From the NCBI RefSeq assembly GCF_003044185.1, contig NZ_PYYB01000001.1, forward strand, positions 248,001 to 312,000: DNA of 64,000 nucleotides, read 5' to 3'. This document shows, one piece after another, positions 17,920 through 50,645 of this stretch (positions are counted from its first letter, which is position 1; every line of letters starts with the position of its first letter). Both the position numbers and the translations under genes were made by a program. The notes beneath the pieces were generated by a model. That model was not told the DNA's origin, searched no databases, and saw only the letters and a program-made list of their open reading frames with translations. This stretch comes from Paraconexibacter algicola. GTDB taxonomy: Bacteria > Actinomycetota > Thermoleophilia > Solirubrobacterales > Solirubrobacteraceae.

Positions 17920-19448
17920 CGGCCCCCTCCGAGCAGCGAGCCGAGCAGGGACTGCAGGTCCGGCGCGGGCGTCGGCGAGGCCTGCGGGTCGCGCTTGCCG
18001 GTGAGCCCGCCGAGCAGCCCGTCGAGCGTGTCCTGGAGGGCCTTGGGCAGATCGCCGACGACCTGCGGCACGGACGGGAGCTTCGGCGTCGCGGGCGCCG
18101 TCGGCTTCCCGGTCTGGGGCGACGGCGTGGGCGTCAGCTGCGGCGTGGCGGACGGGGTCTTCGGCGCCGCGGCAGGGGTCGTGCCGGCGCGCTCGGGCGT
18201 CTCGCGCGCGGCGCGGCGCCCGGCGGTCCCAGCGCCGGCGGCGAAGTGCGCGTCGCACGCCTCGGTGGTGACGACCGCGTACAGGTTGCAGGACCCGTCG
18301 ACGATCGCGTACGCCGGCAGGATGTGCGAGACGCTGTCGTAGCGGGCCAGCGCGGCGGTCGCCCAGTAGACGAACCGCAGCACGCCCTCGACGGCGCCCT
18401 GGTCGCGCGAGCTCTCGAGGAAGGCGGCGAGCTGCGTGCCCGCGGGCCCGGCCGTCTCGGCGAGGCGCCGCAGGCGGCGGATCTGCGGCGCGGCGGGCTT
18501 CACCGCGCGCCGGCCGGCGGCCGCGGCGGTGCCGAGCTCGCGCAGCGCCGGGCGGGCGGCGGTCGAGAACGGGCTGAGCGCGCCGACGAGCCGCGTGGCC
18601 GACGGGGCGGCCGCCGTGAGCTGCCGCACGACCGGCGCGCCGTCCTCCCCGAGGCGGCGCAGCTCGCGCAGCGCGGGCCGGGCCTGCGCCAGGAAGCCGG
18701 GGAGCTCGCGCAGCGTCGACCGCAGCTCGGCGTTGCGCCGGGCGGTCGGGCGGGTCGCGGCGGCGGCACCGCTGATGAAGTCGGCGACGTCCTCGCGGCG
18801 GCCGTCGAGCTCGCCGATGACGGTGTCGGCCTCGCCGATCAGCGTGCGGATCGTCTGGCGCTCGCCGTTGACGAGCGTCAGCAGGCGCTCGGTCTCCTTG
18901 AACGCCGGGTCGGCCTGGCGGATCGCCTCGTCGAGGTCGTCGCCGCGGCCGGCGAGGCCGCCGCCCAGCGCGCTGAGCAGCAGCGCGGCGCGGGTCGTCG
19001 TGGGCTGGCGGAAGGTCGCGAGGACGAGGTCGAGGTCGACGGGCGAGCGCGTGTTCTGGAGCGGCACGGTCGGCGTGTCGCTGCCCGCGGGCACGCGCAG
19101 CTCGCCGGCGTCCGGGGTGCCCGGGGTGCACTGGACGAACTTCTCGCCGATCAGCGACTGGGGCTGCACGGTGCAGTCGGCGTCGGCCCGGAAGGGCGCG
19201 AACTTCGGGTCGACCCGCATGCTGATGCGGGCGCGGCGGTCCTTCGTGAGCGACACGTCCTCGACGCTGCCGACCTTGGCGCCGGCGATCTTCACGTCCT
19301 GGCCGGGGATGAGGAAGCCGGCGTTGCGGAAGATCGCGTCGACGCGGTAGTCCCCGCCGTCGGTCTCGCTGCCGCCCGCACCCGAGAGCACGACGCCCAG
19401 CAGGAGCGCGGCGACCGCCAGCAGCCCGATGCGCAGTCCGAGCTTCAT
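17916..19448 (-). CDS. MCE/MlaD-family protein with Pro/Thr-rich tail (second of the operon)
   Basis: 510 residues. The N-terminal helix (about 4-24) is followed by the MlaD domain (about 35-120: VKIAGAKVGSVEDVSLTKD, IGEKFVQCTPG). A helical region continues to about 370, and CNLYAVVTTEACDAHF probably supplies a disulfide. The last 100 residues are rich in Pro, Thr and Ala (TPSATPQLTPTPSPQTGKPT), typical of an unstructured wall-spanning linker. The protein ends in a Gly/Leu-rich segment. It overlaps the first gene by ATGA. The disordered tail distinguishes it from the other five and may position the complex in the envelope. Confidence 0.92.
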   Translation of the reverse strand: MKLGLRIGLLAVAALLLGVVLSGAGGSETDGGDYRVDAIFRNAGFLIPGQDVKIAGAKVGSVEDVSLTKDRRARISMRVDPKFAPFRADADCTVQPQSLIGEKFVQCTPGTPDAGELRVPAGSDTPTVPLQNTRSPVDLDLVLATFRQPTTTRAALLLSALGGGLAGRGDDLDEAIRQADPAFKETERLLTLVNGERQTIRTLIGEADTVIGELDGRREDVADFISGAAAATRPTARRNAELRSTLRELPGFLAQARPALRELRRLGEDGAPVVRQLTAAAPSATRLVGALSPFSTAARPALRELGTAAAAGRRAVKPAAPQIRRLRRLAETAGPAGTQLAAFLESSRDQGAVEGVLRFVYWATAALARYDSVSHILPAYAIVDGSCNLYAVVTTEACDAHFAAGAGTAGRRAARETPERAGTTPAAAPKTPSATPQLTPTPSPQTGKPTAPATPKLPSVPQVVGDLPKALQDTLDGLLGGLTGKRDPQASPTPAPDLQSLLGSLLGGGR

Positions 19449-20743
19449 GGCGCGTTCCCCGGGTCGCAGGGGAAGCCGGGCGTCGGCGTGTTGTTCGGCG
19501 AGCTCGTGACCTGCCGGTAGGCGCCGCCGGCGCAGCGCGACGTGCGCCCGTTCTTGAACGGCAGCGGCAGGCCCTTGGTGAGCCCGGAGAGGGCACCGGT
19601 GAGCGACAGCTGCGAGGCGACGGGCGTGATCCGCGCGTACGGGCCGTTGGCGTCGTAGGAGTTGACCTGCTGACCGCCGAAGCCGGTGACGACGCCGTGG
19701 TAGACGTCCGGCAGGTACGGCAGGACGCCCTGGACGATCGGGTCGGCGTCGGCGAGGGCGGTGCGCGTCGCGGTGAACGACGCGAGCGCCGTGTCGCGCA
19801 GCGCGGGCATCCGCCGCAGGACCGCGCCAAGGTCGGGCAGCAGGCCGCGCAGCGAGGCGATCGCCGGGCCGGACCGGTCGAGCACGGGCTGCAGGTCGCG
19901 GACCAGTCCGGCGGCGCGCGGGGCGACGGGCCGCAGCTCGCGGGCGGCCGGCCGCAGCGCGGTGAAGGTGCGGTCGAGGTCGTTCAGCGCGCCGGTCGCG
20001 TCGGCCAGCGTCCCGGGCGCGCGGCGCAGGACGCCCTCGAGCGACTGCTGCTCGTCCGCGAGCGTGCGGGCGGTGGTGGCGGCGCCGGCGAGGCCGCGGT
20101 CGAGGTCCGCGTCGCGGGAGGCGACGGCGGCGACGACGGAGGCGGTGCGGACGAGGAAGCCGCGCAGCGCGGTGTTGTCGCGGCCCAGGTCGCGGCTGAG
20201 CAGGTCGAGCTGGGAGAGCGCCGGGTTCAGGGCGACGAGGCCGCGGTTGGCCTCGGCGGCGGCGCCCTCGTAGATCGCGGCCTGGTTGCGCAGCAGGTCC
20301 TGCGCGGCGTTGCGGGTCTGGGCGTCGAGGGTCGCGAGGAGGCTGTCGATCTCGACGACGGAGTTCGTGCGCGCGGTGGCGAGCGTGCCGCCGTCGGCGA
20401 TCTCGGGCGCGTTGTTGGGCCCTGGGTGGAGCTGGATGAACCGGTTGGCGACGCTCGAGAGCGAGGCGACGCGGATCTCCGCGCGGGTGCCCTCGTGCAG
20501 CGGCGTGAGGTCCTCGTCGGTGATGCGGACCTTCACCTCGGCCGCGTTGTCGTCGGCGAGCACGATGTCGTCGACGGTGCCGACCGGCAGGCCACCGACC
20601 TTCACCTCGTTGCCCTTGACGAGCTGGGAGGCGTTGTCGAACCGGAGGGTGAGACGGTACTCGTCACCGCCGCGCGTGAGCACGAGAGCGGCGGCCGCGA
20701 TCGCGACCACCAGCGCTGCCACAGCGACGATCCTCCCCTGCAC
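19445..20743 (-). CDS. MCE/MlaD-family protein (first of the operon)
   Basis: 432 residues starting with GTG. A short N-terminal anchor (about 4-23, IVAVAALVVAIAAAALVLT) is followed by the MlaD domain at about 28-110 (VKVGGLPVGTVDDIVLADD, VANRFIQLHPG). A long helical region follows, and then a C-terminal segment (YLPDVYHGVVTGFGGQQVN) with two cysteines. It heads the six-gene operon. In mycobacterial and rhodococcal mce loci the genes upstream of the first MCE gene encode two YrbE permeases; here the upstream DNA instead carries a divergent small coiled-coil gene. Confidence 0.92.
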   Translation of the reverse strand: MQGRIVAVAALVVAIAAAALVLTRGGDEYRLTLRFDNASQLVKGNEVKVGGLPVGTVDDIVLADDNAAEVKVRITDEDLTPLHEGTRAEIRVASLSSVANRFIQLHPGPNNAPEIADGGTLATARTNSVVEIDSLLATLDAQTRNAAQDLLRNQAAIYEGAAAEANRGLVALNPALSQLDLLSRDLGRDNTALRGFLVRTASVVAAVASRDADLDRGLAGAATTARTLADEQQSLEGVLRRAPGTLADATGALNDLDRTFTALRPAARELRPVAPRAAGLVRDLQPVLDRSGPAIASLRGLLPDLGAVLRRMPALRDTALASFTATRTALADADPIVQGVLPYLPDVYHGVVTGFGGQQVNSYDANGPYARITPVASQLSLTGALSGLTKGLPLPFKNGRTSRCAGGAYRQVTSSPNNTPTPGFPCDPGNAP

Positions 20744-38195: not shown

Positions 38196-38200
38196 CCCCC

Positions 38201-38265
38201 GCCGAACTGGGCGGGCGCAAGGCCGTATCTGGGTCTCGGATCACCCAGAACGGCGGGGCGGGCGG
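38201..38265 (+). repeat. Palindromic intergenic repeat, copy 1
   Basis: This copy starts GCCGAACTGGGCGGG and ends TCGGATCACCCAGAACGGCG. It shares the centre (CCGTATCTGGGTCTCGGATC) with copy 3, but its left arm is diverged, so its hairpin is weaker. It fills the whole gap between the convergent crotonase gene and the hypothetical gene, where it may also act as a terminator. Confidence 0.7.
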
Positions 38266-38829
38266 TCAGGCGGCCTCGCGCGCCACGTAGCCACGCCGGC
38301 GAAGGCGGTCGAGCACGTCGGCGGGCGTACCGAACTCGAGGGCGTCGACCTGCGAGTCACCGCCGCCCTCGTCGAAGGCGAAGACGGTCGCGTCGGCCGT
38401 GAGCGCGACCGGCAGCGTCTGCCGGTTCAGCGCGTGGGCGACCCGGACCAGGGTCCAGAGCACGGGATCGACGACGTTCCCATCGAGCTCAGCCTGGACG
38501 ATCCGCCACGCGTCGATCACCGCTGGCGGCGGCGTGCCAGGCGACGGCTCGACGACGTCGGAGTACTCCCACGCGTTCCAGACGTAGAACCAGCCGAGCG
38601 TCGGATCCTGCGCGAACAGGGCCTCGAGGTCCGCCTCGGTCGCGAGCGCGATGTTCGGCACGACGTCGAGGCCCTCCTGCCCGGCGTCGAGCCCGACGGC
38701 TGCGAACGGCGCGTCCTGCTCGGCGGTTCGCAACAGCGCGACCAGGATCTCGACGTACCCGTCGACGAGGGTGCGCACGGCATCATGCGCCTGGCCGCTC
38801 AGCGGGACGTCCGCGTACTGCTGTGCCAT
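38266..38829 (-). CDS. Hypothetical protein, 187 aa
   Basis: Soluble acidic protein with no recognised family. Features are helical N-terminal residues 1-60, an aromatic stretch LGWFYVWNAWEYSDVVEP at about 78-95 and a helix at about 105-140 (LWTLVRVAHALNRQ). The C-terminal part has TVFAFDEGGGDSQVDALEF and a winged-looking end (LDRLRRRGYVAREAA). The ATG is preceded by GGGAG at a good distance, so it is translated from a leadered mRNA, unlike its neighbours. Copies of the palindromic repeat lie on both sides. It may be a DUF4303-like or immunity-type protein, but this is only a guess. Confidence 0.65.
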   Translation of the reverse strand: MAQQYADVPLSGQAHDAVRTLVDGYVEILVALLRTAEQDAPFAAVGLDAGQEGLDVVPNIALATEADLEALFAQDPTLGWFYVWNAWEYSDVVEPSPGTPPPAVIDAWRIVQAELDGNVVDPVLWTLVRVAHALNRQTLPVALTADATVFAFDEGGGDSQVDALEFGTPADVLDRLRRRGYVAREAA

Positions 38830-38998: not shown

Positions 38999-39089
38999 GT
39001 CCGCGCGCGGACCGCTCCTGGCCGCCGAACTGGGTGAGCGCGAGGCCAGATCCGGGCTTCGGATCACCCAGAACGGCCGGGCGGGCGGG
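38999..39089 (+). repeat. Palindromic intergenic repeat, copy 2
   Basis: This copy begins GTCCGCGCGCGGACCGCTCC, itself starting with a perfect palindrome, and continues CCGAACTGGGTGAGCGCGAG, a short spacer and TCGGATCACCCAGAACGGCC. CTGGGTGA and TCACCCAG pair as an 8-bp stem that continues inside. Copy 3 starts 151 bases downstream in the same orientation. Confidence 0.75.
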
Positions 39090-39149
39090 CGCGCCGCCCA
39101 CCACACGGCGACGTCGCAGGCGCCCCGGTCGGTTACCGCGGCGGTCGCC

Positions 39150-39236
39150 GTCCGCGCGCGGACCGCTCCAATCCACCGAACTGGGTGAGCCCGAGGCCAT
39201 ATCTGGGTCTCGGATCACCCAGAACCGCTGGTGCGG
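39150..39236 (+). repeat. Palindromic intergenic repeat, copy 3 (best hairpin)
   Basis: The same leading GTCCGCGCGCGGACCGCTCC as copy 2 is followed by CCGAACTGGGTGAGCCCGAG, a 13-base loop and CTCGGATCACCCAGAAC. The stem is CTGGGTGA/TCACCCAG, one mismatch, then CCGAG/CTCGG. The paired changes between copies keep the stem, which suggests a selected structure or a mobile REP-like element. Confidence 0.75.
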
Positions 39237-39240
39237 GCAG

Positions 39241-39412
39241 GTGCGGGCCCCGCTGTGCGCGCCTGCGCGCACCCGCGCCCGGCCGCGCACCCGCGCCGGG
39301 CCGCGCCCGCGCCGCGCCCGCGCCGCGCCCGGCCCGCGCCGCGCACGTGCGGCCGCGCCCGCCCACGCCGCGCGCCCGCGCCCGCCCGCCCGCGCCCGCG
39401 CCCGCGCCCGCT
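39241..39412. repeat. GC-only low-complexity tract
   Basis: About 170 bases composed almost only of C and G, with short units such as CGCGCCCGC and CCGCGCC repeated irregularly. It ends at the stop codon of the last gene of the propeller/sulfatase operon. It is prone to slippage, so its exact length may be uncertain in an assembly. Confidence 0.7.
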
Positions 39413-40870
39413 TCAGCGTGCGTCGGCGAACCGCGTCACGCCGCCGAACGAGCCCGCGTAGGCGACGCCGTCCGGGCCCAGCACGACGGCGCCCCCGTCG
39501 CTGTTGAAGCCCAGGCCCTCCCCGGCGAGGACGCCGAAGCGCCGCGCACCGGTGCGCCAGTCCAGGGCGACGAGGTTCCAGGCGTCGGGGAAGCCGGCCG
39601 GCTTCTCGATCGCGTACAGGAGCCCGGTCGCGCGCGAGACGACCGCCTGCGCCGACGGCGTGACGACGTCGCTCGTCCACGCGACGCGGCAGCCGCGTCG
39701 CCCGACGACCACGCGGGCGAGGCCGCCGGTGGTGGTGCCGCCCGCCTCGGTGGTGAGCAGGCTCTGGTAGCCGTAGGCGTTGCTGACGACGAGCGAGCGG
39801 CCCGCCGCCACGAGGTGCGCCTCGACGCTCCCCGCCCCCGGCCGGAAGACCGGCACCGTGCAGCGCAGGCGCTGGGCGTCCCGGCCCGCCGTCCGCAGCA
39901 CGGTCACGCGCGGCGGGTTCAGGCCGTCGACGACCGCGACGAACCCGCCCGCCACCATCACCGGCGGCGTGCCCGGCCCCTCGTGGATGCGGCCCGAGCG
40001 CCCGTCGGCCAGCCCGGAGCCCAGCGGCTGGCGCCAGACGACCCGGGGCATGCCGTCCGGCCGCGCGACGAGCCGGTACAGCGCGTCGCGCGTCACCACG
40101 TAGGTGCCGGACGCGTCGGTCGCGAGGTCCTCCGCGACCGGCTCGCGCAGCGCGAGCGCGCGCACCGGGCCCCCGTCGCGCGGCACGGTGACGACGGTCC
40201 CCGCGGTGCCGACGACCCAGTCGCGTCCGTCGAAGCCGGCGCCGACGGCGAACGGGCGCTCGCCCGTGCCGAGCGCGCCGCCCAGGTCGGTCTCCCCCGC
40301 CTCCTGCAGCCGGTCGCCCTCGACGGTCACGCGCAGCAGCGTGCGGGCGTGCGTCGGCACGAGCAGGCTGCCGTCCGCGCGCACGACGAAGTGGGTGCCG
40401 CCCGCGAGGTCGGTGCGGTCCGGGCCCGGACGCGGCGGCAGCGCCAGCGAGGCGCGGGTCGCGAGCGTCCGCGGGTCGAACAGCCGCAGCCCCGGGCCGA
40501 GCGGGTTGCTGCAGACGGCCAGCAGCCGGTCGCGCGCGTCGAACGCCAGCGACGAGCAGCCGCCCTGCGCGAACGCGCTGATCGAGCGCGTGCCGACACC
40601 CAGCGGTCCCGGGTACGGGGAGGCCGCGCCGTTCCCGGCGGCCAGGCCGCTGCCGCTGCGCCCGTCAGCGGCGAGCGCCGGGTTGGCGGGCGGGAACGGT
40701 CCGGGCAGCGGGGCCGCGGTCGCGGGCGCCCCGGTGTACCGCGGCAGCGGACCGTCGAGCGGTCCCGGGATCGGGAACGCCGCCTGCTGCGCGGACGTCG
40801 CCGGGACCGCGGCGAGCGCGGTCGCCCCGGCCGCGACCAGGGCGCCGAGGAGCGTGCGCCGGCGGCTCAC
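39413..40870 (-). CDS. Exported beta-propeller protein (sixth gene of the sulfatase operon)
   Basis: 485 residues. The N terminus SRRRTLLGALVAAGATAL is a Tat-type signal (RRR then a hydrophobic run) ending near TSAQQ. A Pro/Gly-rich linker (about 35-75) precedes blades of a propeller: SLAFDARDRLLAVCSNP, GGTHFVVRADGSLLVPTHAR, LATDASGTYVVTRDALYRL and DWVVGTAGTVVTVPRDGG. No catalytic motif is evident. GTG 40870 overlaps the stop of the preceding gene by 4 bases. It is the third propeller gene of this operon, and only it lies after the second sulfatase and the unknown gene. Confidence 0.82.
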   Translation of the reverse strand: MSRRRTLLGALVAAGATALAAVPATSAQQAAFPIPGPLDGPLPRYTGAPATAAPLPGPFPPANPALAADGRSGSGLAAGNGAASPYPGPLGVGTRSISAFAQGGCSSLAFDARDRLLAVCSNPLGPGLRLFDPRTLATRASLALPPRPGPDRTDLAGGTHFVVRADGSLLVPTHARTLLRVTVEGDRLQEAGETDLGGALGTGERPFAVGAGFDGRDWVVGTAGTVVTVPRDGGPVRALALREPVAEDLATDASGTYVVTRDALYRLVARPDGMPRVVWRQPLGSGLADGRSGRIHEGPGTPPVMVAGGFVAVVDGLNPPRVTVLRTAGRDAQRLRCTVPVFRPGAGSVEAHLVAAGRSLVVSNAYGYQSLLTTEAGGTTTGGLARVVVGRRGCRVAWTSDVVTPSAQAVVSRATGLLYAIEKPAGFPDAWNLVALDWRTGARRFGVLAGEGLGFNSDGGAVVLGPDGVAYAGSFGGVTRFADAR

Positions 40871-41637
40871 GGGACGGTCACCGGGTCGGCGCCGGGCACG
40901 TCGGGCCGGGCGGCGGGCGCCGCCGCGTGCTCGTCCTCGCCGCCGCGCAGCGACGGCCGGTAGACGCTCGCGGGCTCCTGCCGGTAGACCTGCACGACGC
41001 AGGCGTCGACGTGCTCCTCCAGGCGCGGCGCGAGCTCGGCCAGCGCCTGCAGCGGCAGCGCGGCGTCGCGCGGCGGGGCGAACAGCGCGATCTGCGGGAA
41101 GCTCAACGGGTGCGGGTCGGTCGGCGCGGGCGGCTCGAGGAAGCCGAGCGAGGCGACCGCGCGGGTCGCGTACACGCACGGTCCCGCGATCGGCTCGGTC
41201 AGCGCGCGGACCGCGTCGATCGCGTCGTCGTCGGCGCCGCGCAGGTGCACGGCGACGAGCGTCCGCGCGGATCGCAGCTGCGGGGCCGTGTGCATCGCGT
41301 GCGTGAACGACGCCTCGAAGCGGCGCACCCCGGACTCGCGGAGCAGGTTGATCGCCAGGTAGTACGGGTTCAGCGTCATCGCCAGGAAGCGCCGCTGCGA
41401 CGGGTAGCGGACGACCAGGAACTTGTCCGCCTGCCGCTCCCCGTGCACGACCGTCTCGGTCCGGCCCATCCACAGCGGCCGACCGCCGACGGCCAGCAGC
41501 GGCGGCGTCACGAGCAGCGCGTACCAGCGGTAGTGCGACCAGCGGCCGGTGTGGATGAGGTTGATGACGTCCAGCGGCCCGGGCAGGTCGCGACGCGCGA
41601 GGTCCAGGAGCGGGCGGGGACGGATGCGGTGCAGCAC
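40867..41637 (-). CDS. Unknown protein, DUF1330-like in part (fifth gene of the sulfatase operon)
   Basis: 256 residues, no signal peptide. The stretch GERQADKFLVVRYPSQRRFL, followed by LNPYYLAINLLRESGVRRFE, resembles the ferredoxin-like dimer fold of DUF1330/NIPSNAP-type proteins. A second similar half follows (GPCVYATRAVASLGFLEPP; IALFAPPRDAALPLQALA). The last 40 residues are polar and Pro-rich. It starts at GTG 41637, 3 bases after the second sulfatase stop, and overlaps the following propeller gene. If it is cytosolic, it is the only member of the operon that is not exported. Confidence 0.7.
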   Translation of the reverse strand: MLHRIRPRPLLDLARRDLPGPLDVINLIHTGRWSHYRWYALLVTPPLLAVGGRPLWMGRTETVVHGERQADKFLVVRYPSQRRFLAMTLNPYYLAINLLRESGVRRFEASFTHAMHTAPQLRSARTLVAVHLRGADDDAIDAVRALTEPIAGPCVYATRAVASLGFLEPPAPTDPHPLSFPQIALFAPPRDAALPLQALAELAPRLEEHVDACVVQVYRQEPASVYRPSLRGGEDEHAAAPAARPDVPGADPVTVP

Positions 41638-41640
41638 GGG

Positions 41641-43434
41641 TCAGCTTTCGGGGAGGAGTTCGCAGAAGAAGCGGGCGTGGTCGGCCCCGCTCGGGCGGGG
41701 CCCGAGCAGGCCGAGGTCGGGCAGGCCGCCCTCGTACAGGAAGGCGGCCGGGGTCGGCTGCGGGCCGGGGATCGTCAGGTAGCTGCCGGGCGCCGCACCG
41801 ACCCACGGGTTGGGGATCGTGTTCGACGTCGCGTTGAGGCTCGGCGGCTCGGGCAGCTTGCGGATCGGGGCGCGCGGCCCGTAGGCCGACACCTGCACCG
41901 GGGTGAACGACACCGCCTCGCGCTCGTAGAGCCAGGCGAGCAGGTCGGCGGCGAGCGCCGCGTAGCCGGGGTCGTTGGCGAGGTTGCGGATCTCGTACGG
42001 GTCGTTCCAGGTGTCGTACAGCTCGTACTCCTGGCGCTCGCGCAGCTCCGGTCCCGCGAAGTGCTGGTCGGCGACCGCGACGTAGCGGGCGAACTTGTAG
42101 CGGCCGTCGTAGATCGCGCGGATGTGGCTGTTCGTGGGGACCGCGGTGCCGACGTTCGTGATCGGGTACTCGTCGGTGCGGTAGAGCGTGTGGTCGCGCG
42201 GGCCGCGCCGCTCGGGATGCTCGAGCGCCTCGACGAGCGACACGCCCCGCAGCCAGGGCCAGCGCGCGACCGGGTCGGCGGCGCCCGCGACCTCCAGCAG
42301 CGTCGGCACGAGGTCGACCGCCTCCCCGAGCGCGGCCGAGCGCCCGCCGCGCGGGAACCGCTTCGGGTAGACGACGGTGAACGGCACGCGGTTCTGCTCG
42401 TCGTACATCGTCGTGCCCTTGTTCTGCAGGCGGTGCGCCGAGCCCAGCTCGCCGTGGTCGGCGGTGCGGACGATCACGGTGTCGTCGAGCGCCCCGGCGT
42501 CCGCGACCGCGCGGATCGCGGCCCCGAGCATCTCGTCGGTCCCGACGATGAGGTCGTAGTAGACGTTCAGGTGGCCACGGAAGTAGTCCGGGTCGTCCTG
42601 GGTGCCGCGCGGCGTGCCCGCGACGACCGCGGCGACCTCGCGGAAGCGCTGCTGGCTCGTCGGCTTGTCCGCGAGCGTCGGCTCGGCGTGGAAGGACGGC
42701 TCGAGCTGCGGGTCGTAGTCCGGCCGCTCCCAGTCGACGCGGAAGCCGCGCGGGTAGAACTGGATGTCGTGCGGGTTGAGCAGCGACAGCACGCACAGCC
42801 ACGGCCGCTCGTCGTCGGCGTGCCGCTTCAGCCAGTCGACCGCCTGGCCGGTCCAGATCGGGTCGTTGGTGTACCCGTCGTTGTAGCCGCCGACGTCCGC
42901 GGGCGGGGAGATCGCGGAGTCGTCGAAGCCGTAGCCGGCGAGCGGGCTGCCCTTCGCGAGGTCGAGCAGCGCCTCCGGATTGGTCGGCGGCTCGCCGGGG
43001 AACGAGAGGTGCCACTTGCCGAAGAACGCGGTGCGGTACCCGAGCTCCTTGAAGAGGTCGCCGATCGTGGGGATCGACGGGTCCATGGTGAACTGCGTGC
43101 CGAGCACGAAGGTCCCGTAGATCCCCTGCTGCGGCGCGTACATGCCCGTCCAGAAGCACGCGCGCGACGGGGAGCAGGCCATCGAGGAGGCGTGGAAGCG
43201 GTCGATCCGCGTGCCGTTGGCGTCCATCCAGCAGCGCACCGGGGTCGGGAGGTGGTCCGGCAGGCGGTCCTGGTGGCGCTCCTGGTCGGTCATGAGGATC
43301 AGGACGTTCGGGCGCCGGCCCGCGGGCGCCGGCGCGGCGGCAGCGGGGACCGCGGCGGTCGCGAGGCCGCCGAGCGACGCGGCCGCCGCCAGCCGCGCAC
43401 CGCCCGCGAGGAACCCGCGCCGGTCGGTGCTCAT
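41641..43434 (-). CDS. Tat-exported sulfatase with canonical CxPSR motif
   Basis: 597 residues. The Tat signal is MSTDRRGFLAGG plus a hydrophobic run to about residue 35. The sulfatase fold begins PNVLILMTDQERH (metal Asp50). The formylglycine site is Cys87 in MACSPSRACFWTG, followed by GYRTAFFGKWHLS. TVIVRTADHGELGSAHRL supplies the other metal ligands (DH). LLNPHDIQFYPRGFRVDW and EYELYDTWNDPYEIRNLAND are typical of choline-sulfatase/arylsulfatase enzymes. It would hydrolyse an external sulfate ester. It overlaps the upstream propeller gene by ATGA. No maturing FGE gene is in the window. Confidence 0.92.
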   Translation of the reverse strand: MSTDRRGFLAGGARLAAAASLGGLATAAVPAAAAPAPAGRRPNVLILMTDQERHQDRLPDHLPTPVRCWMDANGTRIDRFHASSMACSPSRACFWTGMYAPQQGIYGTFVLGTQFTMDPSIPTIGDLFKELGYRTAFFGKWHLSFPGEPPTNPEALLDLAKGSPLAGYGFDDSAISPPADVGGYNDGYTNDPIWTGQAVDWLKRHADDERPWLCVLSLLNPHDIQFYPRGFRVDWERPDYDPQLEPSFHAEPTLADKPTSQQRFREVAAVVAGTPRGTQDDPDYFRGHLNVYYDLIVGTDEMLGAAIRAVADAGALDDTVIVRTADHGELGSAHRLQNKGTTMYDEQNRVPFTVVYPKRFPRGGRSAALGEAVDLVPTLLEVAGAADPVARWPWLRGVSLVEALEHPERRGPRDHTLYRTDEYPITNVGTAVPTNSHIRAIYDGRYKFARYVAVADQHFAGPELRERQEYELYDTWNDPYEIRNLANDPGYAALAADLLAWLYEREAVSFTPVQVSAYGPRAPIRKLPEPPSLNATSNTIPNPWVGAAPGSYLTIPGPQPTPAAFLYEGGLPDLGLLGPRPSGADHARFFCELLPES

Positions 43435-44405
43435 GCGGTCACCCGGTGCACCGCACCGGTGAGGTGGTCGACGGTGAACGCGCGCTCGCCGACGACCGCC
43501 AGGCCGCGGGGGGCGCCGCCGACCGCGCGCCGGCGGGGTCGCGGGCCGAGCACGACGACCTGCCCGGCGCCGCCCACGACCGCCAGGCGACGGCCGCGAC
43601 GCGTGTAGCCCACGGCCGCCGGGAGCGGCCCGGCGGGCAGTCGCCGGACGGTGCCGCGGCGCAGGTCGATCTCGCTGACCCGGTCGGCGTCGGGGCCTGC
43701 GTGGGTGAGCAGCAGGCGGCGGCCGTCGGGGGCGAGCGCGAGCCGCTCGGGCCGGGGCGGTGTCGCCAGGCGGCGGGTGAGGCGCCCGCTGCGCAGGTCG
43801 ATGCGGACGACCTCGTCCTGGGCGGCGAGCGCGACCCAGGCGGCGCGGCCGTCGGCGGTCACGGCGAGCCCGCGCGGCACGAGCCCGAGCTCGTGTCGCG
43901 CGAGCACGGCCGTGCCGTCGGCGTCGAGGACGTGCAGGGTCCCCTCCTGCTCCCCGCCGACGACGACGAGCCGCGCGCGGCGGCCGGTGGTGAAGGTCGC
44001 GGCCCCCGGAGCGGGACCGACGTCGGCCCGGCGCAGCGTCCGAGCTGCGACGGGGTCCACCATCACGAGCCCCGGCTGGTCCCACGCAGCCGTGCTCACC
44101 GCGATCCGTCGCCCGTCCGGCGACACCGCGACCTCCACCGGTTGTCCGCCCACGTCGACGAGGCGGTCGGCGCGTCCTCCGCGGCCGATCAGCGCGATCG
44201 TGCGACGGCGGTCGTGCGCGACGACGAGCGTGCGGCCGTCGCGCGAGGCGGCGATCGCGACCCCGCGGCGCACGGTCACCGAGCGGGCGGCGACGATCGT
44301 GGCGGGCGCCGTGGGCGCGGCGGCGGGCGCGACCGCCGGGGCGGCGAGCAGGCCGGTCGCGCCGGCGACGGCGGCGCCGAGCGCCTCGCGTCGCGTGCTG
44401 CTCAT
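43431..44405 (-). CDS. Exported YVTN-type beta-propeller protein (third gene of the sulfatase operon)
   Basis: 324 residues. It has a Tat-type signal STRREALGAAVAG (about 1-30) followed by seven-blade YVTN/WD-like repeats: VEVAVSPDGRRIAVSTAAW, RGLAVTADGRAAWVALAAQ, ERLALAPDGRRLLLTHAGP and PRGLAVVGERAFTVDHLTG. Blades carry the pattern xLAVSPDGRxAxV with a following DLRSG turn. There is no enzymatic motif. It overlaps both neighbouring sulfatase genes by 4 bases, so it is made together with them. The family often binds other exported proteins. Confidence 0.87.
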   Translation of the reverse strand: MSSTRREALGAAVAGATGLLAAPAVAPAAAPTAPATIVAARSVTVRRGVAIAASRDGRTLVVAHDRRRTIALIGRGGRADRLVDVGGQPVEVAVSPDGRRIAVSTAAWDQPGLVMVDPVAARTLRRADVGPAPGAATFTTGRRARLVVVGGEQEGTLHVLDADGTAVLARHELGLVPRGLAVTADGRAAWVALAAQDEVVRIDLRSGRLTRRLATPPRPERLALAPDGRRLLLTHAGPDADRVSEIDLRRGTVRRLPAGPLPAAVGYTRRGRRLAVVGGAGQVVVLGPRPRRRAVGGAPRGLAVVGERAFTVDHLTGAVHRVTA

Positions 44406-46210
44406 CGCGTCCGGCCGGCCATCGGGCCGAGCTCGCAGAGCATCCGCGCCCGGTGCAGGGCGCGGGCCTCGGCCAGTGCCCGCGACTCGTCCGCCGTCTG
44501 CGGCAGCCGGTCGCCGCCGACGCCGTCGTAGACGCGGGCGAGCAGGTGCGGGTCGCCGAACGGCAGCTGCACGTACGCGCCGGGCACGCCCTCGACCGGG
44601 GACGGCGGGTTCTCCTTGGTCTGGTCGCCGATCGACGGGCGCCCGATCGGGTCGGGGCGGATCGGCTCGATCAGCGACGGCGGCCCGCTGAGCGGCACCT
44701 CGACGGGGCCCAGGCGCTCGCGCTCGAGGTCGTTCAGGACGGTGAGCAGCTCGTCCAGGAGCGGCTTGTAGGCCGGATCGCGGGCGAGGTTGCGCAGCTC
44801 CAGCGGGTCCTCGCGCAGGTCGTAGAGCTCGTACTCCTGGTCCTCGGTGCGCTCGGTCTGGGGCTTGCCGGTCATCGCGACGTAGCGCGCGATCTTGAAG
44901 CGCCCGGAGAGCGCGGCGCGGACGTGACGCCGCCACGCCTTGCCCTGGCCGGCGAAGTCCTGCGGCGACCAGACCTCGTCGCAGGTGCTGACCGTGAACT
45001 CCTTGCCACGCGCCCCGACCGGGTCCTGCAGGGCGGGGACGAGCGAGCGGCCGCGCAGCCACGGGTAGCGGTTGACGGGGTCGGCGACCCCGGCGAGCTC
45101 GAGGCACGTGGGCACGAGGTCGACGGCCTCGGCGAGCGCGGGCGTGCGCGCGCCCTGGACCGCCGGGAACCGCTTCGGGTAGGAGATCGACAGCGGCATC
45201 CGCAGCTGCTCGTCGTAGATCATCGGTCCCTTGCCGACGGCGCGGTGCGAGCCGGCCATCTCGCCGTGGTCGGCGGTGCGGATGACCACGGTGTCGTCGA
45301 ACCCGCCCGAGTGGTGCAGGGCCTTCATGATCGCCGCGTAGTTGTCGTCGGTGTTGACGATCAGGTCGCAGTAGGTGTTGATCAGCCGCTTCCACGTGGC
45401 GGTGTCGTCGGGCTTGATCTTGCCGCGGACGAGCGCCGCGCCCCCGTCGTACTGGGCGTGGACGCGCGGCTTGGAGCGCACGTCGTCCTCGAAGTTCGGG
45501 GGCAGCTGCACCTCCCAGTCGGGCCGGGTGACGTCGGCGGTGAAGCCGCGCGGGAAGTACGCGATGTCGTGCGGGTTCAGCAGCGAGACGACGCAGAACC
45601 AGGGCTGGTCGCCGCCCCCGTGCTCCTTGAGCCAGTCGACGCCCTGCTTCGTCCAGACCGGGTCGTTGTAGATGCCGTCGTTGTAGCCGGCGGGCTCCAG
45701 CGAGGTGGAGATCTCGGAGTAGTCGAAGCCGTACGGCGCGAGGTAGTTGTTGCGCAGCGTGTCGAGCGGTCCCTCCGGCAGCGAGGTGCCGACCATGCTG
45801 AGGTGCCACTTGCCGAAGAACGCGGTGGTGTACCCCTGCTCCTTGAGCAGGTCGGCGATCGTCGGGATCCGTGGGTCGAGCGAGAACTGCCAGCTCTGCA
45901 GGAAGTTCCCGAAGATCCCGTTCTGCGGCACGTACATGCCGGTCCACATGCAGGCGCGCGCGGACGAGCACTGCACGGCGGAGTGGTGGAACCGCTCGAA
46001 GGTGACGCCGTGGCTGTCGATCCAGTCGCGCGCGGGGAGCGGCAGGTCGGGCGTCCACTGCGGCGCGCGCTCCTGGTCGCACATGACGATGAGGATGTTC
46101 GGCTTGCGCGTCGGGGTCTGGGCCCCGGCGCTCGCCTGCCCGAGGGCGGCGGCGGTGAGGGCCGCGGCGCCCGCGGCGCCGAGGGCCTCCCGGCGGGTGG
46201 TGCGGGACAT
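44402..46210 (-). CDS. Tat-exported sulfatase with variant CSSAR active-site motif
   Basis: 602 residues, close in sequence and length to the downstream sulfatase. Tat signal TTRREALGAAGAAALTA; fold start PNILIVMCDQERAP (metal Asp45). The formylglycine position is Cys81 in VQCSSARACMWTG, so the usual Pro and Ser of CxPSR are Ser and Ala. GYTTAFFGKWHLS and TVVIRTADHGEMAGSHRAV are intact. Because formylglycine-generating enzyme normally needs CxPxR, this copy may be poorly matured, matured differently or catalytically altered. ATG 46210 shares its last base with the stop of the upstream propeller gene (TGATG). Confidence 0.9.
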   Translation of the reverse strand: MSRTTRREALGAAGAAALTAAALGQASAGAQTPTRKPNILIVMCDQERAPQWTPDLPLPARDWIDSHGVTFERFHHSAVQCSSARACMWTGMYVPQNGIFGNFLQSWQFSLDPRIPTIADLLKEQGYTTAFFGKWHLSMVGTSLPEGPLDTLRNNYLAPYGFDYSEISTSLEPAGYNDGIYNDPVWTKQGVDWLKEHGGGDQPWFCVVSLLNPHDIAYFPRGFTADVTRPDWEVQLPPNFEDDVRSKPRVHAQYDGGAALVRGKIKPDDTATWKRLINTYCDLIVNTDDNYAAIMKALHHSGGFDDTVVIRTADHGEMAGSHRAVGKGPMIYDEQLRMPLSISYPKRFPAVQGARTPALAEAVDLVPTCLELAGVADPVNRYPWLRGRSLVPALQDPVGARGKEFTVSTCDEVWSPQDFAGQGKAWRRHVRAALSGRFKIARYVAMTGKPQTERTEDQEYELYDLREDPLELRNLARDPAYKPLLDELLTVLNDLERERLGPVEVPLSGPPSLIEPIRPDPIGRPSIGDQTKENPPSPVEGVPGAYVQLPFGDPHLLARVYDGVGGDRLPQTADESRALAEARALHRARMLCELGPMAGRTR

Positions 46211-47250
46211 CAGCGGGGACCCTTCGTGAGCGGGACGGCGGTGAGCAGGCCGGTGTCGCCGTCGACGGCGATCCCCCGGCGTCCGGCGACGGCGACCGCG
46301 CGGGGCGCGCCGCCGGGGCGCGCGCGACGGCGGTGGCGGCCGCTGCGCAGGTCGAGCACCGAGACGGTGCCGTCCCCGGCGTTGGCGACGAGCGCGACGG
46401 TCCCGCGCGCGTCGACGGCGACCCCGGCCGGGTCGGCGCCGGTGCGCAGGGTCCGCAGGGCGCGGCCGCGGACGAGGTCGACGAGCGTGACCCCGGTGGC
46501 GCCGTAGCCGTCGTGGGTGACGAGGGCGCGGGTGCCGCGCGCGGCGAGCGCGAGCTCGGAGGGGAACGGGGACGTCGCGATCCGGCGCAGGACGCGGCGG
46601 CGGCGGAGGTCGACGAGCAGGAGCGCCGCGCCGGTGTGGTCGGTGACGGCGGCGCGGCGGCCGTCGGGCAGCAGCGCGACGGCGCGCGGGCGACCGCCGA
46701 GCGCGATCGGCCCGTCGACGGCGCCGTCGGCGAGCGTGACGCGCAGCAGCCCCTCCTCCCCGGCGACCCAGGCGTGCCGTCCGTCGGCGGTGACGGCGAG
46801 GGCGCGCGGCGCGGCGCCGACGTCGACGCGGTCGGTCGCGGTGCCGGTGAGGTCGACGAGCACGAGGCCGGGGCGGTCGTGCGTGGCGGTGAGCACGAGC
46901 GCGGTGCGGCCGTCGGGGGTGAGCGTGAGCGCGAGCGGCGAGCCCCCGACGTCGCGCGCCGGACCGCGGACGAGGTCGCGCACGCGGACGCGGCTGATCG
47001 TGGTGGCGCCGGCATCGGCGGTCCAGGCGCTGCGCGCGCCGGGCGCGAGCGCGATGGCGCTCGTGCGGGTGCCCGGGGCGGTCGGCGTGCACGGCGCGGT
47101 GTCGGCCGCGCGGGCGACCCCGTCGAGCAGCGATCCGGACGCGGCCCACCCGGCCGCGCCCGTCATCGCTCCGAGCACGAGGGAGCGTCGCGTGCTCCCC
47201 GACGGCGTGGACGCGCCGCTCCCCGACTCTGCTGACCCCTGCTCCCGCAC
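46210..47250 (-). CDS. Exported YVTN-type beta-propeller protein (first gene of the sulfatase operon)
   Basis: 346 residues. The Tat signal lies at about 20-50 (STRRSLVLGAMTGAAGWAA). Propeller blades follow: LALTLTPDGRTALVLTATH, RALAVTADGRHAWVAGEEG, RAVALLPDGRRAAVTDHTG and AGVAVDARGTVALVANAGD. GTG 47250 is chosen because GGAGG ends 7 bases upstream; GTG 47253 is also possible. It heads a six-gene operon (47250 to 39413) and is divergent from a TetR gene across about 95 bases that contain two direct repeats. It looks like a paralogue of the propeller at 43431-44405. Confidence 0.87.
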   Translation of the reverse strand: MREQGSAESGSGASTPSGSTRRSLVLGAMTGAAGWAASGSLLDGVARAADTAPCTPTAPGTRTSAIALAPGARSAWTADAGATTISRVRVRDLVRGPARDVGGSPLALTLTPDGRTALVLTATHDRPGLVLVDLTGTATDRVDVGAAPRALAVTADGRHAWVAGEEGLLRVTLADGAVDGPIALGGRPRAVALLPDGRRAAVTDHTGAALLLVDLRRRRVLRRIATSPFPSELALAARGTRALVTHDGYGATGVTLVDLVRGRALRTLRTGADPAGVAVDARGTVALVANAGDGTVSVLDLRSGRHRRRARPGGAPRAVAVAGRRGIAVDGDTGLLTAVPLTKGPR

Positions 47251-47277
47251 CACGGAACCTCCGCTTCTCCACCGCGC

Positions 47278-47323
47278 TGATGACGCGGTGTCGCAGACCT
47301 TCCCAGCTTGATGACGCGCTGTC
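47278..47323. promoter_or_regulatory. Direct-repeat operator region between the sulfatase operon and tetR
   Basis: TGATGACGCGGTGTC (47278-47292) and TGATGACGCGCTGTC (47309-47323) differ in one base and are spaced 31 bases apart, about three helical turns. Each contains a TGAC...GTC(A) partial dyad. They lie between the divergent sulfatase operon and the TetR gene, so they are probable binding sites of that TetR protein. Confidence 0.55.
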
Positions 47324-47963: not shown

Positions 47964-48634
47964 CCCCGAAGGACCGCATCGAGCGCCGGCTCGTGCCCCG
48001 GCTGATCGTGACCCTGTCGACCGTCGACGCCCACCGGCGGCTGCTCGCGCGGCTGCGCCGGGCGCGCGGCGGGCGCGGCACCGTCGACCTGTACGTCGCC
48101 TTCGACGACCCGTACAGCGCGGTCGCGACGCTCGGCCTCGCCGCCCGGACGGCCGGCCGCCCCGCGGACGTGCGCGTCCACCCGGTCGTCGCCCGCGGGA
48201 TCCCCGGCGACCCGGCCGCCGAGGCCAAGCGCAGCTACGCGGTGACCGACGCCCGGCGCCTCGCGGCCCGCGACGGACTGACCTTCACGCGCACCACGAC
48301 CGTCACCCCCGCCGCGGCGGCGTTCCTCGCCCGCTGGACCGCCGCCGCGCCCGACGGCGCCGCCCGGCTCGCGTTCGCGGCCGACGCCATGCGACGGCTG
48401 TGGTGCGAGGACGTCGAGCCGACCCCCGACGCGTACGCGGACCTCCACGCCGCGCACCTCGGCCCGCCGCCGGCGGCGGCGCCCGAAGCGCTCCCCGCCG
48501 AGTCGGTCATGCGGCGGCGCGGCCTCTACGACACGCCGATCGCGGTCGTCCACGGGCAGTGGTTCTTCGCCCACGAGCGACTGCCGCAGATCGAGCACCG
48601 CCTCGACGAGCTCGGCTGGAGGGCCACCGCATGA
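47960..48634 (+). CDS. DsbA-like / HCCA-isomerase-family protein (diverged)
   Basis: 224 residues of the thioredoxin-fold kappa-GST/2-hydroxychromene-2-carboxylate isomerase family. The first strand and active-site loop read VDLYVAFDDPYSAVATLGLA, with FDDPYS in place of the usual SPYS. The C-terminal cis-Pro region is YDTPIAVVHGQWFFAHERLPQIEHRLDE, typical of the family. It lacks the CxxC of DsbA. The Asp next to the active-site region and the longer basic N terminus set it apart from the next gene. It probably acts on a glutathione- or mycothiol-linked intermediate or works as its partner subunit. It overlaps both neighbours by 4 bases. Confidence 0.8.
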   Translation: MTPKDRIERRLVPRLIVTLSTVDAHRRLLARLRRARGGRGTVDLYVAFDDPYSAVATLGLAARTAGRPADVRVHPVVARGIPGDPAAEAKRSYAVTDARRLAARDGLTFTRTTTVTPAAAAFLARWTAAAPDGAARLAFAADAMRRLWCEDVEPTPDAYADLHAAHLGPPPAAAPEALPAESVMRRRGLYDTPIAVVHGQWFFAHERLPQIEHRLDELGWRATA

Positions 48635-49212
48635 CGACCGTCCGCTTCTTCTTCTCGTTCCGCAGCCCGTACTCGTACCTCGCGGCACCGCGTGCGTTCG
48701 AGCTCGCGCGGCGCCACGACGTCGAGATCGACGTCCGCGGCGTCCTGCCGATGGCGATGCGCGGCCAGTCGGTGCCGCTGCCCAAGCGGCTGCACACGCT
48801 GCGCGACGCCAAGCGCGAGGCCACGCGCCTGGGCCTGCCGTTCGGTCGCGTGCACGACCCGATCGGGGACGGCGCGGTCCGCTGCCTGCGGGTCTCCGAG
48901 CACGCGCGGGACGTCGGGCGGATCGAGCCGTTCGTGCTGACCGCCAGCCGCGCGATCTGGGGCGAGGCCGTCGAGGTCGCCTCCGACGAGGGCCTGCGCG
49001 CGGTCTGCGAGCGCGCCGGCCTGGAGTGGGCGGCGTGCCGCGCGGCGATCGACGACCCGGCGATGCAGGCGCGGGTCCAGGCCAACACCGACGAGCTCGC
49101 CGCCCTGGGCATGTGGGGCGTGCCGGTGTTCACGCTGGGCGACGAGTGCTTCTGGGGCCAGGACCGGCTCGAGGACCTCGAGGCGGCGCTGACCGCCGGC
49201 GCCGTCGCCTGA
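48631..49212 (+). CDS. 2-hydroxychromene-2-carboxylate isomerase-like (kappa-GST/DsbA fold)
   Basis: 193 residues. The N terminus RFFFSFRSPYSYLAAPRAFE contains the active-site SPYSY of HCCA isomerase/kappa GST. The C terminus has the cis-Pro segment WGVPVFTLGDECFWGQDRL and the family end DLEAAL. The middle is the all-helical insertion (about 60-150). Known members isomerise a ring-opened aromatic intermediate or act as GST; an aromatic or lipid role is possible here. It is last in the TetR operon. Confidence 0.87.
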   Translation: MTTVRFFFSFRSPYSYLAAPRAFELARRHDVEIDVRGVLPMAMRGQSVPLPKRLHTLRDAKREATRLGLPFGRVHDPIGDGAVRCLRVSEHARDVGRIEPFVLTASRAIWGEAVEVASDEGLRAVCERAGLEWAACRAAIDDPAMQARVQANTDELAALGMWGVPVFTLGDECFWGQDRLEDLEAALTAGAVA

Positions 49213-49226
49213 CCGGCCGCCGCCGC

Positions 49227-50645
49227 TCAGCCGGGGCCGAGGTTCTCCACGGCGGGCGGCCGCCAGCGCCCGTCGAGCGCCTCGGGCGCGGGCCCGTAGA
49301 GCCGCAGGTTCAGGCGGAAGGTGCCGGGCGGCGAGGGCAGCCAGTTGACGTCGGGAGCCGTCGGTCGCGTCCGCGCGATCTCGATCACGACCGAGCCGTC
49401 GGGCCGGGTCCGCAGCGGCGGGTGGCTCGGGCCGATCGAGTAGAGGTCGTCGGGGTTGTCGACGAGGTAGCCGTCGGCGTCGTACATCGTCAGTGACCAG
49501 AAGAACCGCGCGGGCGGGATCCGGTCGGGCGTGAAGGTCAGCCGGTAGCGGTTGAGGCCCAGGAACGGGAGTCCGAGGCCGTCGGTGACGCCCGCGGGGT
49601 AGGTCGCCTCCTCGGGCGTGTTGGCGCCCAGGCCGAGCGCGGCGATCAGCGCGCGGTCGCGGTAGGCGGTGCCGAACGCCCCGGTGTTCGCGGGCGGCGT
49701 GTACCAGCCGTCGGTGCGCTGGGCGGCGAGCAGCGCGTCGAGCCGGGAGGTCGACGTCAGCGTGCGGGCCGACAGCTCGATGCCGGCGAAGAGCGCGGCG
49801 CGCGTGGCGGGGTCGAGCTTGGCCGCCTCGGGCGAGCGGCCCGGCCCGATGCCGTAGGGCGCGAGGCGACGCAGCAGCGGCCGGTCGCGGTCAGGCGGTG
49901 GGCTCTCCTCCATCGCGCGGTTGAGCGCGGCGACGAAGCCACCGCCGTCGGTCGGGGTGGGGAAGCTGCCCGGGTCGCCGGGGCGGCAGTCGGTCGCGAA
50001 GCGGCGCGCGGTGCCGTCCAGGCGCGACAGCCGGTAGCGCTGCATGAGCGCGAACGCCCGCGCCTGGTCGGCCCGGTCGGTGGCGAGCGTGCGTCCGATG
50101 ATCCACACGCGGCGGTGCGGGGAGGTGACGACGCGGGTGAACGTGCGGCGCCCGACCTTGCCGGGCTTCTGCGCCCAGCGGACGAGGATGCGCCCGGCCC
50201 GGCCCCCGTCCTCGCGCGTGCCGGGGGTCGCGATGACGTTCGTGTACGGATCGAGCATCGCGAAGCTGAAGTAGCGCGTGCCCATCGCGGGGTGGCGCAG
50301 GACGATCGGGCCCTTGCCGAGGTCGAGGTGCGCGATCGAGTAGAGCGTGTCGGTGTTCGGCGCGACGACGGTGCGGGCGGAGGCGTCGGCGAAGACCGGG
50401 ACGTTGGAGAACGCGTTGACGGGGGCGTTGCCGCGCTCGTCGGGGCAGCGGACGCTCGTCATCTCGCGGCGGACGCGCAGGAACTCCAGCAGCGGGAAGC
50501 CGTACTCGTGGGCGGCCTGTCCGACGGCGAGCGCGGCGACCGGGTTGGGCGCACCCTCGCGGTCGGCCTGCTGCGCCGGAGCGGTGGCGGCGGCCCCGAG
50601 CAGAACGGCGACCGCGGCGAGCGTCGCACCGATTCCCCGTGTCAT
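49227..50645 (-). CDS. Exported DUF1254/DUF1214-domain protein
   Basis: 472 residues with a signal peptide (about 1-24, ending APAQQ). The DUF1254 domain covers about 40-180 (VVAPNTDTLYSIAHLDLGKG, GTRYFSFAMLDPYTN). The C-terminal DUF1214 domain covers about 330-460 (YRDRALIAALGLGANTPEEA, RFFWSLTMYDADGYLVDNPD, IGPSHPPLRTRPDGSVVIEI, VNWLPSPPGTFRLNLRLYGP). The family is secreted and widespread in soil bacteria, and its function is not settled. TAGCGT lies 8 nt before the ATG. It converges with the HCCA-isomerase operon and is divergent from the crotonase at 50734. Confidence 0.9.
   Translation of the reverse strand: MTRGIGATLAAVAVLLGAAATAPAQQADREGAPNPVAALAVGQAAHEYGFPLLEFLRVRREMTSVRCPDERGNAPVNAFSNVPVFADASARTVVAPNTDTLYSIAHLDLGKGPIVLRHPAMGTRYFSFAMLDPYTNVIATPGTREDGGRAGRILVRWAQKPGKVGRRTFTRVVTSPHRRVWIIGRTLATDRADQARAFALMQRYRLSRLDGTARRFATDCRPGDPGSFPTPTDGGGFVAALNRAMEESPPPDRDRPLLRRLAPYGIGPGRSPEAAKLDPATRAALFAGIELSARTLTSTSRLDALLAAQRTDGWYTPPANTGAFGTAYRDRALIAALGLGANTPEEATYPAGVTDGLGLPFLGLNRYRLTFTPDRIPPARFFWSLTMYDADGYLVDNPDDLYSIGPSHPPLRTRPDGSVVIEIARTRPTAPDVNWLPSPPGTFRLNLRLYGPAPEALDGRWRPPAVENLGPG

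What the first reader, a model, noticed from the sequence alone, without database searches (positions are those of the whole stretch)
39413..47250. Six-gene overlapping operon alternating exported beta-propellers with sulfatases
Gene order is propeller, sulfatase, propeller, sulfatase, unknown, propeller. Four of the five junctions overlap by 1-4 bases and the fifth is 3 bases, so production is tightly coupled. Five of the six proteins have Tat-type signals. The propellers carry no catalytic motif and look like paralogues. A one-to-one propeller/sulfatase pairing suggests dedicated binding partners, for substrate presentation, metal-cofactor folding before Tat export or surface display. I know of no described system with this arrangement.
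Basis: partly seen in the sequence, partly recalled or inferred. Interest (0 to 1): 0.7.

Follow-up and report, generated by a model that had tools for sequence, protein, structure and literature searches.

The report
Duplicated propeller–sulfatase gene pairs
A soil-type actinobacterium (order Solirubrobacterales) carries a switch-controlled cluster in which exported sulfate-removing enzymes are each made together with a ring-shaped "propeller" protein, a pairing that recurs in distant relatives and therefore probably reflects a working partnership, although physical contact is unproven.

Summary
In detail: six minus-strand genes, propeller–sulfatase–propeller–sulfatase–DUF1330–propeller, joined by overlaps of 1, 4, 4 and 4 bases and one 3-base gap. 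Five proteins carry twin-arginine signals. P1 and P2 are paralogous seven-bladed YVTN propellers; P3 is an unrelated BamB/YxaL/Rv3035-like propeller.

The alternation is best read as a duplicated propeller–sulfatase cassette (P1/P2 42%, S1/S2 about 48% identical), with a third copy elsewhere in the genome. It is conserved in a same-genus genome (TetR | P1–S1 … P2–S2–P3) and in another family (TetR | S1–P2–S2–P3). A sister sulfatase clade across Thermoleophilia is also preceded by a lactonase-like propeller: 14 of 17 genomes with that propeller also have the sulfatase (expected 2.9), ten of them adjacent on the same strand. A divergent TetR with two exact operator copies, unique in the genome, probably controls the locus.

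The pairing idea is supported genomically; contact, substrate and role are untested. P3 and DUF1330 do not fit a one-to-one scheme. The operon genomes lack FGE and anSME, and S1 has an altered motif (CSSAR), so how these sulfatases gain formylglycine is open.

The parts
46210..47253 (-). P1: Tat-type exported seven-bladed YVTN-type propeller
   Evidence: ortholog L137:51-1070 (52-53%) supports the start and Tat motif
44402..46210 (-). S1: Tat-type exported sulfatase (PF00884), variant active-site motif CSSAR
   Evidence: ortholog L105:11473-13296 (73%, motif CSSSR)
45956..45970 (-). S1 active-site motif C81-S-S-A-R85 (third position Ser, not Pro/Ala)
   Evidence: pattern from PMC5066984
43431..44405 (-). 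P2: Tat-type exported seven-bladed YVTN-type propeller, paralogue of P1
41641..43434 (-). S2: Tat-type exported sulfatase (PF00884) with canonical CSPSR motif
   Evidence: orthologs 78-80%, C5 paralogue 67%
43162..43176 (-). S2 active-site motif CSPSR
40867..41637 (-). U: DUF1330-domain protein without signal peptide; accessory, not conserved
   Evidence: PF07045 24.7 bits, cut-off 23; truncated to about 62 aa in L105, absent from L107
39413..40870 (-). P3: exported BamB/YxaL/Rv3035-like propeller with four invariant cysteines
47278..47292 (+). operator-like copy 1 TGATGACGCGGTGTC
   Evidence: equivalents in L137 and L105 intergenic regions
47309..47323 (+). operator-like copy 2 TGATGACGCGCTGTC, 31 bp from copy 1
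   Evidence: the only two exact sites in the 4.7 Mb genome
47346..47963 (+). divergent TetR-family regulator
   Evidence: TetR-type matches; orthologs 65-66% at the same place in L137 and L105
47960..48634 (+). DsbA/HCCA-isomerase-like protein 1, overlapping tetR
   Evidence: conserved in L137 (63%); no Pfam family; likeness judged by eye
48631..49212 (+). DsbA/HCCA-isomerase-like protein 2
   Evidence: PF01323 E 2e-26; conserved in L137 (73%)

Best explanation
The locus is a probably TetR-controlled operon built on a propeller-sulfatase cassette that was duplicated (P1-S1, P2-S2; third copy on contig C5), with an unrelated propeller (P3) behind it. Shown: gene order, overlaps, N-terminal signals (by eye), folds, conservation, operator-like repeats. 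Inferred: a substrate-derived ligand releases TetR; overlapping genes give near-equal amounts of propeller and sulfatase; both fold in the cytosol and leave by Tat; outside, the non-catalytic YVTN propeller binds its sulfatase as a stabilising, docking or substrate-holding partner while the sulfatase removes sulfate from an organic sulfate ester; the desulfated product feeds neighbouring catabolic genes.
For: P2 directly precedes S2 with an ATGA overlap in the window, G078 and G006, and the C5 pair has the same junction; P1 directly precedes S1 in the window and G006. A sister clade (about 30% identical sulfatases) is also preceded by a homologous propeller (hhalign 96%) in G081, G099, G077, G016, G036, G089, G295, G315, G304 and G069, with a 4-base overlap in L160 and very short spacing in L154, L152 and L166; co-occurrence 14 of 17, hypergeometric P 1.6e-9 (genomes are related, so this is optimistic). 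Sulfatase metal and catalytic residues are intact. Two exact operator-like sites, nowhere else in the genome, with counterparts in relatives.
Against: No contact data; complexes could not be modelled. S1 has no propeller of its own upstream in G078. Many sister-clade sulfatases have no such propeller (51 genomes with the sulfatase, 17 with the propeller). P2 (57-59% identity) is less conserved than S2 (79%) between orthologs. No propeller of these two families was found near 79 more distant sulfatases.
Confidence: 0.45

Rival explanations
1. The propellers are separate players in the same pathway: lactonase-like hydrolases or free substrate-binding proteins acting on the same sulfated compound, with no physical complex.
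For: Sister-clade partners match PF10282 'Lactonase' above its cut-off; propellers and sulfatases share operon and export; loss of P1 in G078 and absence of propellers beside many sulfatases fit a dispensable accessory protein.
Against: P1 and P2 stay below the PF10282 cut-off. The propeller-first, near-overlapping order argues for matched synthesis more than for mere co-regulation.
Confidence: 0.3
2. No functional pairing: an ancestral chance neighbour pair was duplicated and persists in a compact operon; each protein works alone.
For: P1/P2 and S1/S2 are paralogous, so the alternation itself is one event, not two independent ones. Overlapping genes are common in such genomes.
Against: Pairing persists across families and at about 30% sulfatase identity, and a third copy in the same genome is again a pair.
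Confidence: 0.18
3. A companion protein of this cluster takes part in sulfatase maturation (formylglycine formation or metal loading), replacing the missing FGE.
For: The only PF03781 match in G000 and in G078 is EgtB next to EgtD; anSME absent; all sulfatases keep the active-site Cys.
Against: The propellers carry Tat signals, whereas known bacterial FGE acts in the cytosol (PMC4505483). Other genomes (G016, G099, G093) also seem to lack FGE, and E. coli makes formylglycine by unidentified machinery (PMC6189696). At least 8 of 15 sister-clade genomes have a true FGE, five of them beside propeller-paired sulfatases.
Confidence: 0.05

Closest known systems
Type I (formylglycine) sulfatases, SulfAtlas family S1 (choline sulfatase / PehA / mucin sulfatase-like)
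   Same: Fold family, D-Q and D-H metal residues, GKWH and lysine motifs, CSPSR in S2.
   Different: S1 has CSSAR/CSSSR; no FGE or anSME in the operon genomes; coupled to propeller genes.
YVTN/YncE/lactonase seven-bladed propellers (1l0q surface-layer domain, YncE, hydrazine synthase beta subunit)
   Same: Fold and repeat pattern of P1/P2; hydrazine synthase beta is a precedent for a propeller serving as enzyme subunit.
   Different: Below all curated cut-offs; the neighbour here is a sulfatase.
BamB / YxaL / Rv3035-like propellers
   Same: Predicted fold of P3.
   Different: No sequence family; part of a Thermoleophilia family mostly away from sulfatases.
Sulfatase-containing polysaccharide utilisation loci
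   Same: Clustered exported sulfatases under dedicated control.
   Different: No SusCD pair and no glycoside hydrolase in the operon; TetR beside it; propellers instead.

Membership tests
Type I formylglycine-dependent sulfatase (PF00884) | PF00884 domain above cut-off | tested here: met
   138 and 138.8 bits, cut-off 25
Type I formylglycine-dependent sulfatase (PF00884) | C/S-x-P/A-x-R maturation motif | tested here: inconclusive
   S2 CSPSR: met. S1 CSSAR (ortholog CSSSR): not met at position 3 (pattern PMC5066984)
Type I formylglycine-dependent sulfatase (PF00884) | Metal and catalytic residues (DQ, DH, GKWH, NPHD, lysine before YDEQ/YEEQ) | tested here: met
   invariant in all six sequences; roles of the residues from general knowledge of the family
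Type I formylglycine-dependent sulfatase (PF00884) | A maturation enzyme (FGE or anSME) in the genome | tested here: not met
   only EgtB-type PF03781 in G000 and G078; no anSME
YVTN/lactonase seven-bladed propeller (P1, P2) | Seven-bladed propeller fold | tested here: met
   P2 model pLDDT 85, best matches 1l0q, hydrazine synthase beta, YncE; P1 by sequence only
YVTN/lactonase seven-bladed propeller (P1, P2) | Curated family cut-off (PF10282, YNCE, TIGR03866) | tested here: not met
BamB-like propeller (P3) | BamB/YxaL-type fold | tested here: met
   model pLDDT 82; TM by target length: Rv3035 0.78, YxaL 0.72-0.74, BamB 0.62-0.70
Dedicated enzyme-propeller complex | Physical contact of propeller and sulfatase | not testable with these tools
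   only single chains can be folded

The most novel reading that the evidence does not exclude
The propeller-sulfatase cassette is a maturation-plus-export unit: the propeller or another companion of the cluster lets a Cys-type sulfatase become active in genomes that have neither FGE nor anSME, i.e. a third route to an active sulfatase.
Probability: 0.05. Interest if true: 0.85.

Novelty: new variant of a known kind. Interest (0 to 1): 0.5.

Why it matters
It points to an undescribed, recurrent partner of bacterial sulfatases in a little-studied class, testable with one pull-down. It also gives near-complete genomes with Cys-type sulfatases and no known formylglycine-making enzyme, a setting in which the open question of further maturation routes can be tested directly.

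Tried and rejected
The FGE-domain hits of G000 and G078 looked at first like maturation enzymes but are EgtB (DinB-like N-terminus, EgtD neighbour). Plasmid collection: no relative above 60% identity, best about 30%. The idea that all three propellers are paralogues was rejected. A signal-less propeller-like gene next to tetR in relatives was tested as a P3 relative: no support (hhalign 0.6%). Sulfatases from other bacteria: none of these two propeller families nearby. Literature searches for sulfatase plus beta-propeller plus operon, and for Solirubrobacter sulfatases, found no such system among the listed papers; the library is incomplete.

Full report
WHAT IS THERE. P1/S1 share 1 base, S1/P2 and P2/S2 share 4 (ATGA), S2/U are 3 bases apart, U/P3 share 4. 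S1 and S2 are PF00884 sulfatases (138 bits each). P1 and P2 match YVTN-type propellers; the P2 model is a seven-bladed propeller closest to the archaeal surface-layer YVTN domain, hydrazine synthase beta and YncE. P3 matches no sequence family, but its model is a propeller closest to Rv3035, YxaL and BamB. U has a DUF1330 domain. Twin-arginine N-termini are visible in all but U (by eye).

PARALOGY. P1 and P2 are about 42% identical, S1 and S2 about 48%. P3 is only doubtfully related to P2 (hhalign 52%). The alternation is therefore most simply a tandem duplication of one propeller–sulfatase cassette. A third cassette stands on contig C5 (propeller then sulfatase, 4-base overlap, beside its own divergent TetR; L106), with a P2-like propeller (50%) and an S2-like sulfatase (67%).

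CONSERVATION. The same-genus genome G006 (its contig C356 appears to be JAOPZJ010000433.1, titled Solirubrobacterales bacterium RYN_252, same length and match position) carries P2-S2-P3 on one contig and, on contig C371, tetR and P1, followed directly by an ATG and the start of an S1-like protein (MVDPTGSQTTRREALR) before the contig ends. G078, of another family, carries tetR | S1-P2-S2-P3 without P1, with a truncated U of about 62 codons. Both P2/S2 junctions are again ATGA overlaps. Beyond these the close family is rare: 3 of 399 genomes of the class, and one hit above 35% identity in a scan of 84,980 species genomes (that scan uses peptide patterns and may leave out near relatives of the window).

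A SECOND, DISTANT SET OF PAIRS. Sulfatases about 30% identical to S1/S2, found across Thermoleophilia, often have a PF10282-type propeller just upstream on the same strand (L151, L152, L153, L154, L159, L160, L166). In a 299-genome sample, 51 have this sulfatase at E<=1e-60 and 17 this propeller at E<=1e-40; 14 have both, 2.9 expected (P 1.6e-9, not corrected for relatedness). In ten genomes the two are immediate same-strand neighbours. That propeller family is homologous to P1/P2 (hhalign 96%). No member of the two propeller families turned up beside 79 sulfatases from other bacteria, nor in 13 other loci of the class that were fetched for P3 relatives.

REGULATION. The tetR–P1 gap holds two copies of TGATGACGCGNTGTC, 31 bp apart. 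They are the only exact matches in 4.7 Mb. Similar paired sites lie in the same gap in G006 and G078. The pattern was derived from these two sites, so its rarity shows that the sites are local to this locus, not that they bind TetR. Two DsbA/HCCA-isomerase-like genes follow tetR here and in G006.

MATURATION PUZZLE. S2 and its relatives have CSPSR or CTPSR, but S1 has CSSAR and its G078 ortholog CSSSR, outside the published pattern with Pro or Ala at that place (PMC5066984). The only PF03781 matches in G000 and G078 are EgtB, and neither genome has anSME. At least eight of fifteen sister-clade genomes do have a true FGE, with the GGSxLC...YCxRYR motif, but a few others seem not to, so the lack is not special to this operon. 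Unidentified maturation is already known for E. coli, and an unmodified sulfatase can still turn over slowly (PMC6189696).

MECHANISM. Most likely (0.45) propeller and sulfatase are made in matched amounts, exported folded by Tat, and work as partners, the propeller as a non-catalytic scaffold or docking subunit. Independent enzymes or binding proteins in one pathway come next (0.30), then no pairing (0.18). The substrate is unknown; the window around the operon holds many CoA-linked and oxygenase-type genes, which suggests, without showing, that a sulfated organic compound is fed into catabolism.

LIMITS. Signals were judged by eye, gene calls in relatives come from a simple codon-position script, genomes in the samples are related and partly incomplete, and complexes could not be modelled.

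Noticed in passing
38200-38275, 39023-39098, 39174-39249: Three copies (75-83% identical to the first) of a roughly 76-bp intergenic repeat with the core GGATCACCCAGAAC, next to a very GC-rich low-complexity stretch at 39268-39410.
   Followed up: partly
L137:2055-3434 and L105:14008-15342: A signal-less protein, 80% identical between the two relatives, sits just behind tetR in G006 and G078 but not in the window; it matches no Pfam family and looks propeller-like by eye.
   Followed up: partly
L154:9334-10485: A gene with a weak FGE-sulfatase domain match (20.9 bits, cut-off 23.3) lies beside a propeller-sulfatase pair in a genome with no clear FGE.
   Followed up: no
L150:6145-10450; window 49227-50645: In L150 a P3-like propeller overlaps the first of two homologues (57% and 53%) of the window gene at 49227-50645, so P3-type propellers and that family may be linked.
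   Followed up: no
12316-20743: Six consecutive, mostly overlapping genes of 424-512 codons with N-terminal hydrophobic segments, resembling an mce import operon; families not tested.
   Followed up: no
L106:6608-10053: Third propeller-sulfatase cassette of the genome on contig C5, with its own divergent TetR (38% identical) and a different operator-like sequence.
   Followed up: partly
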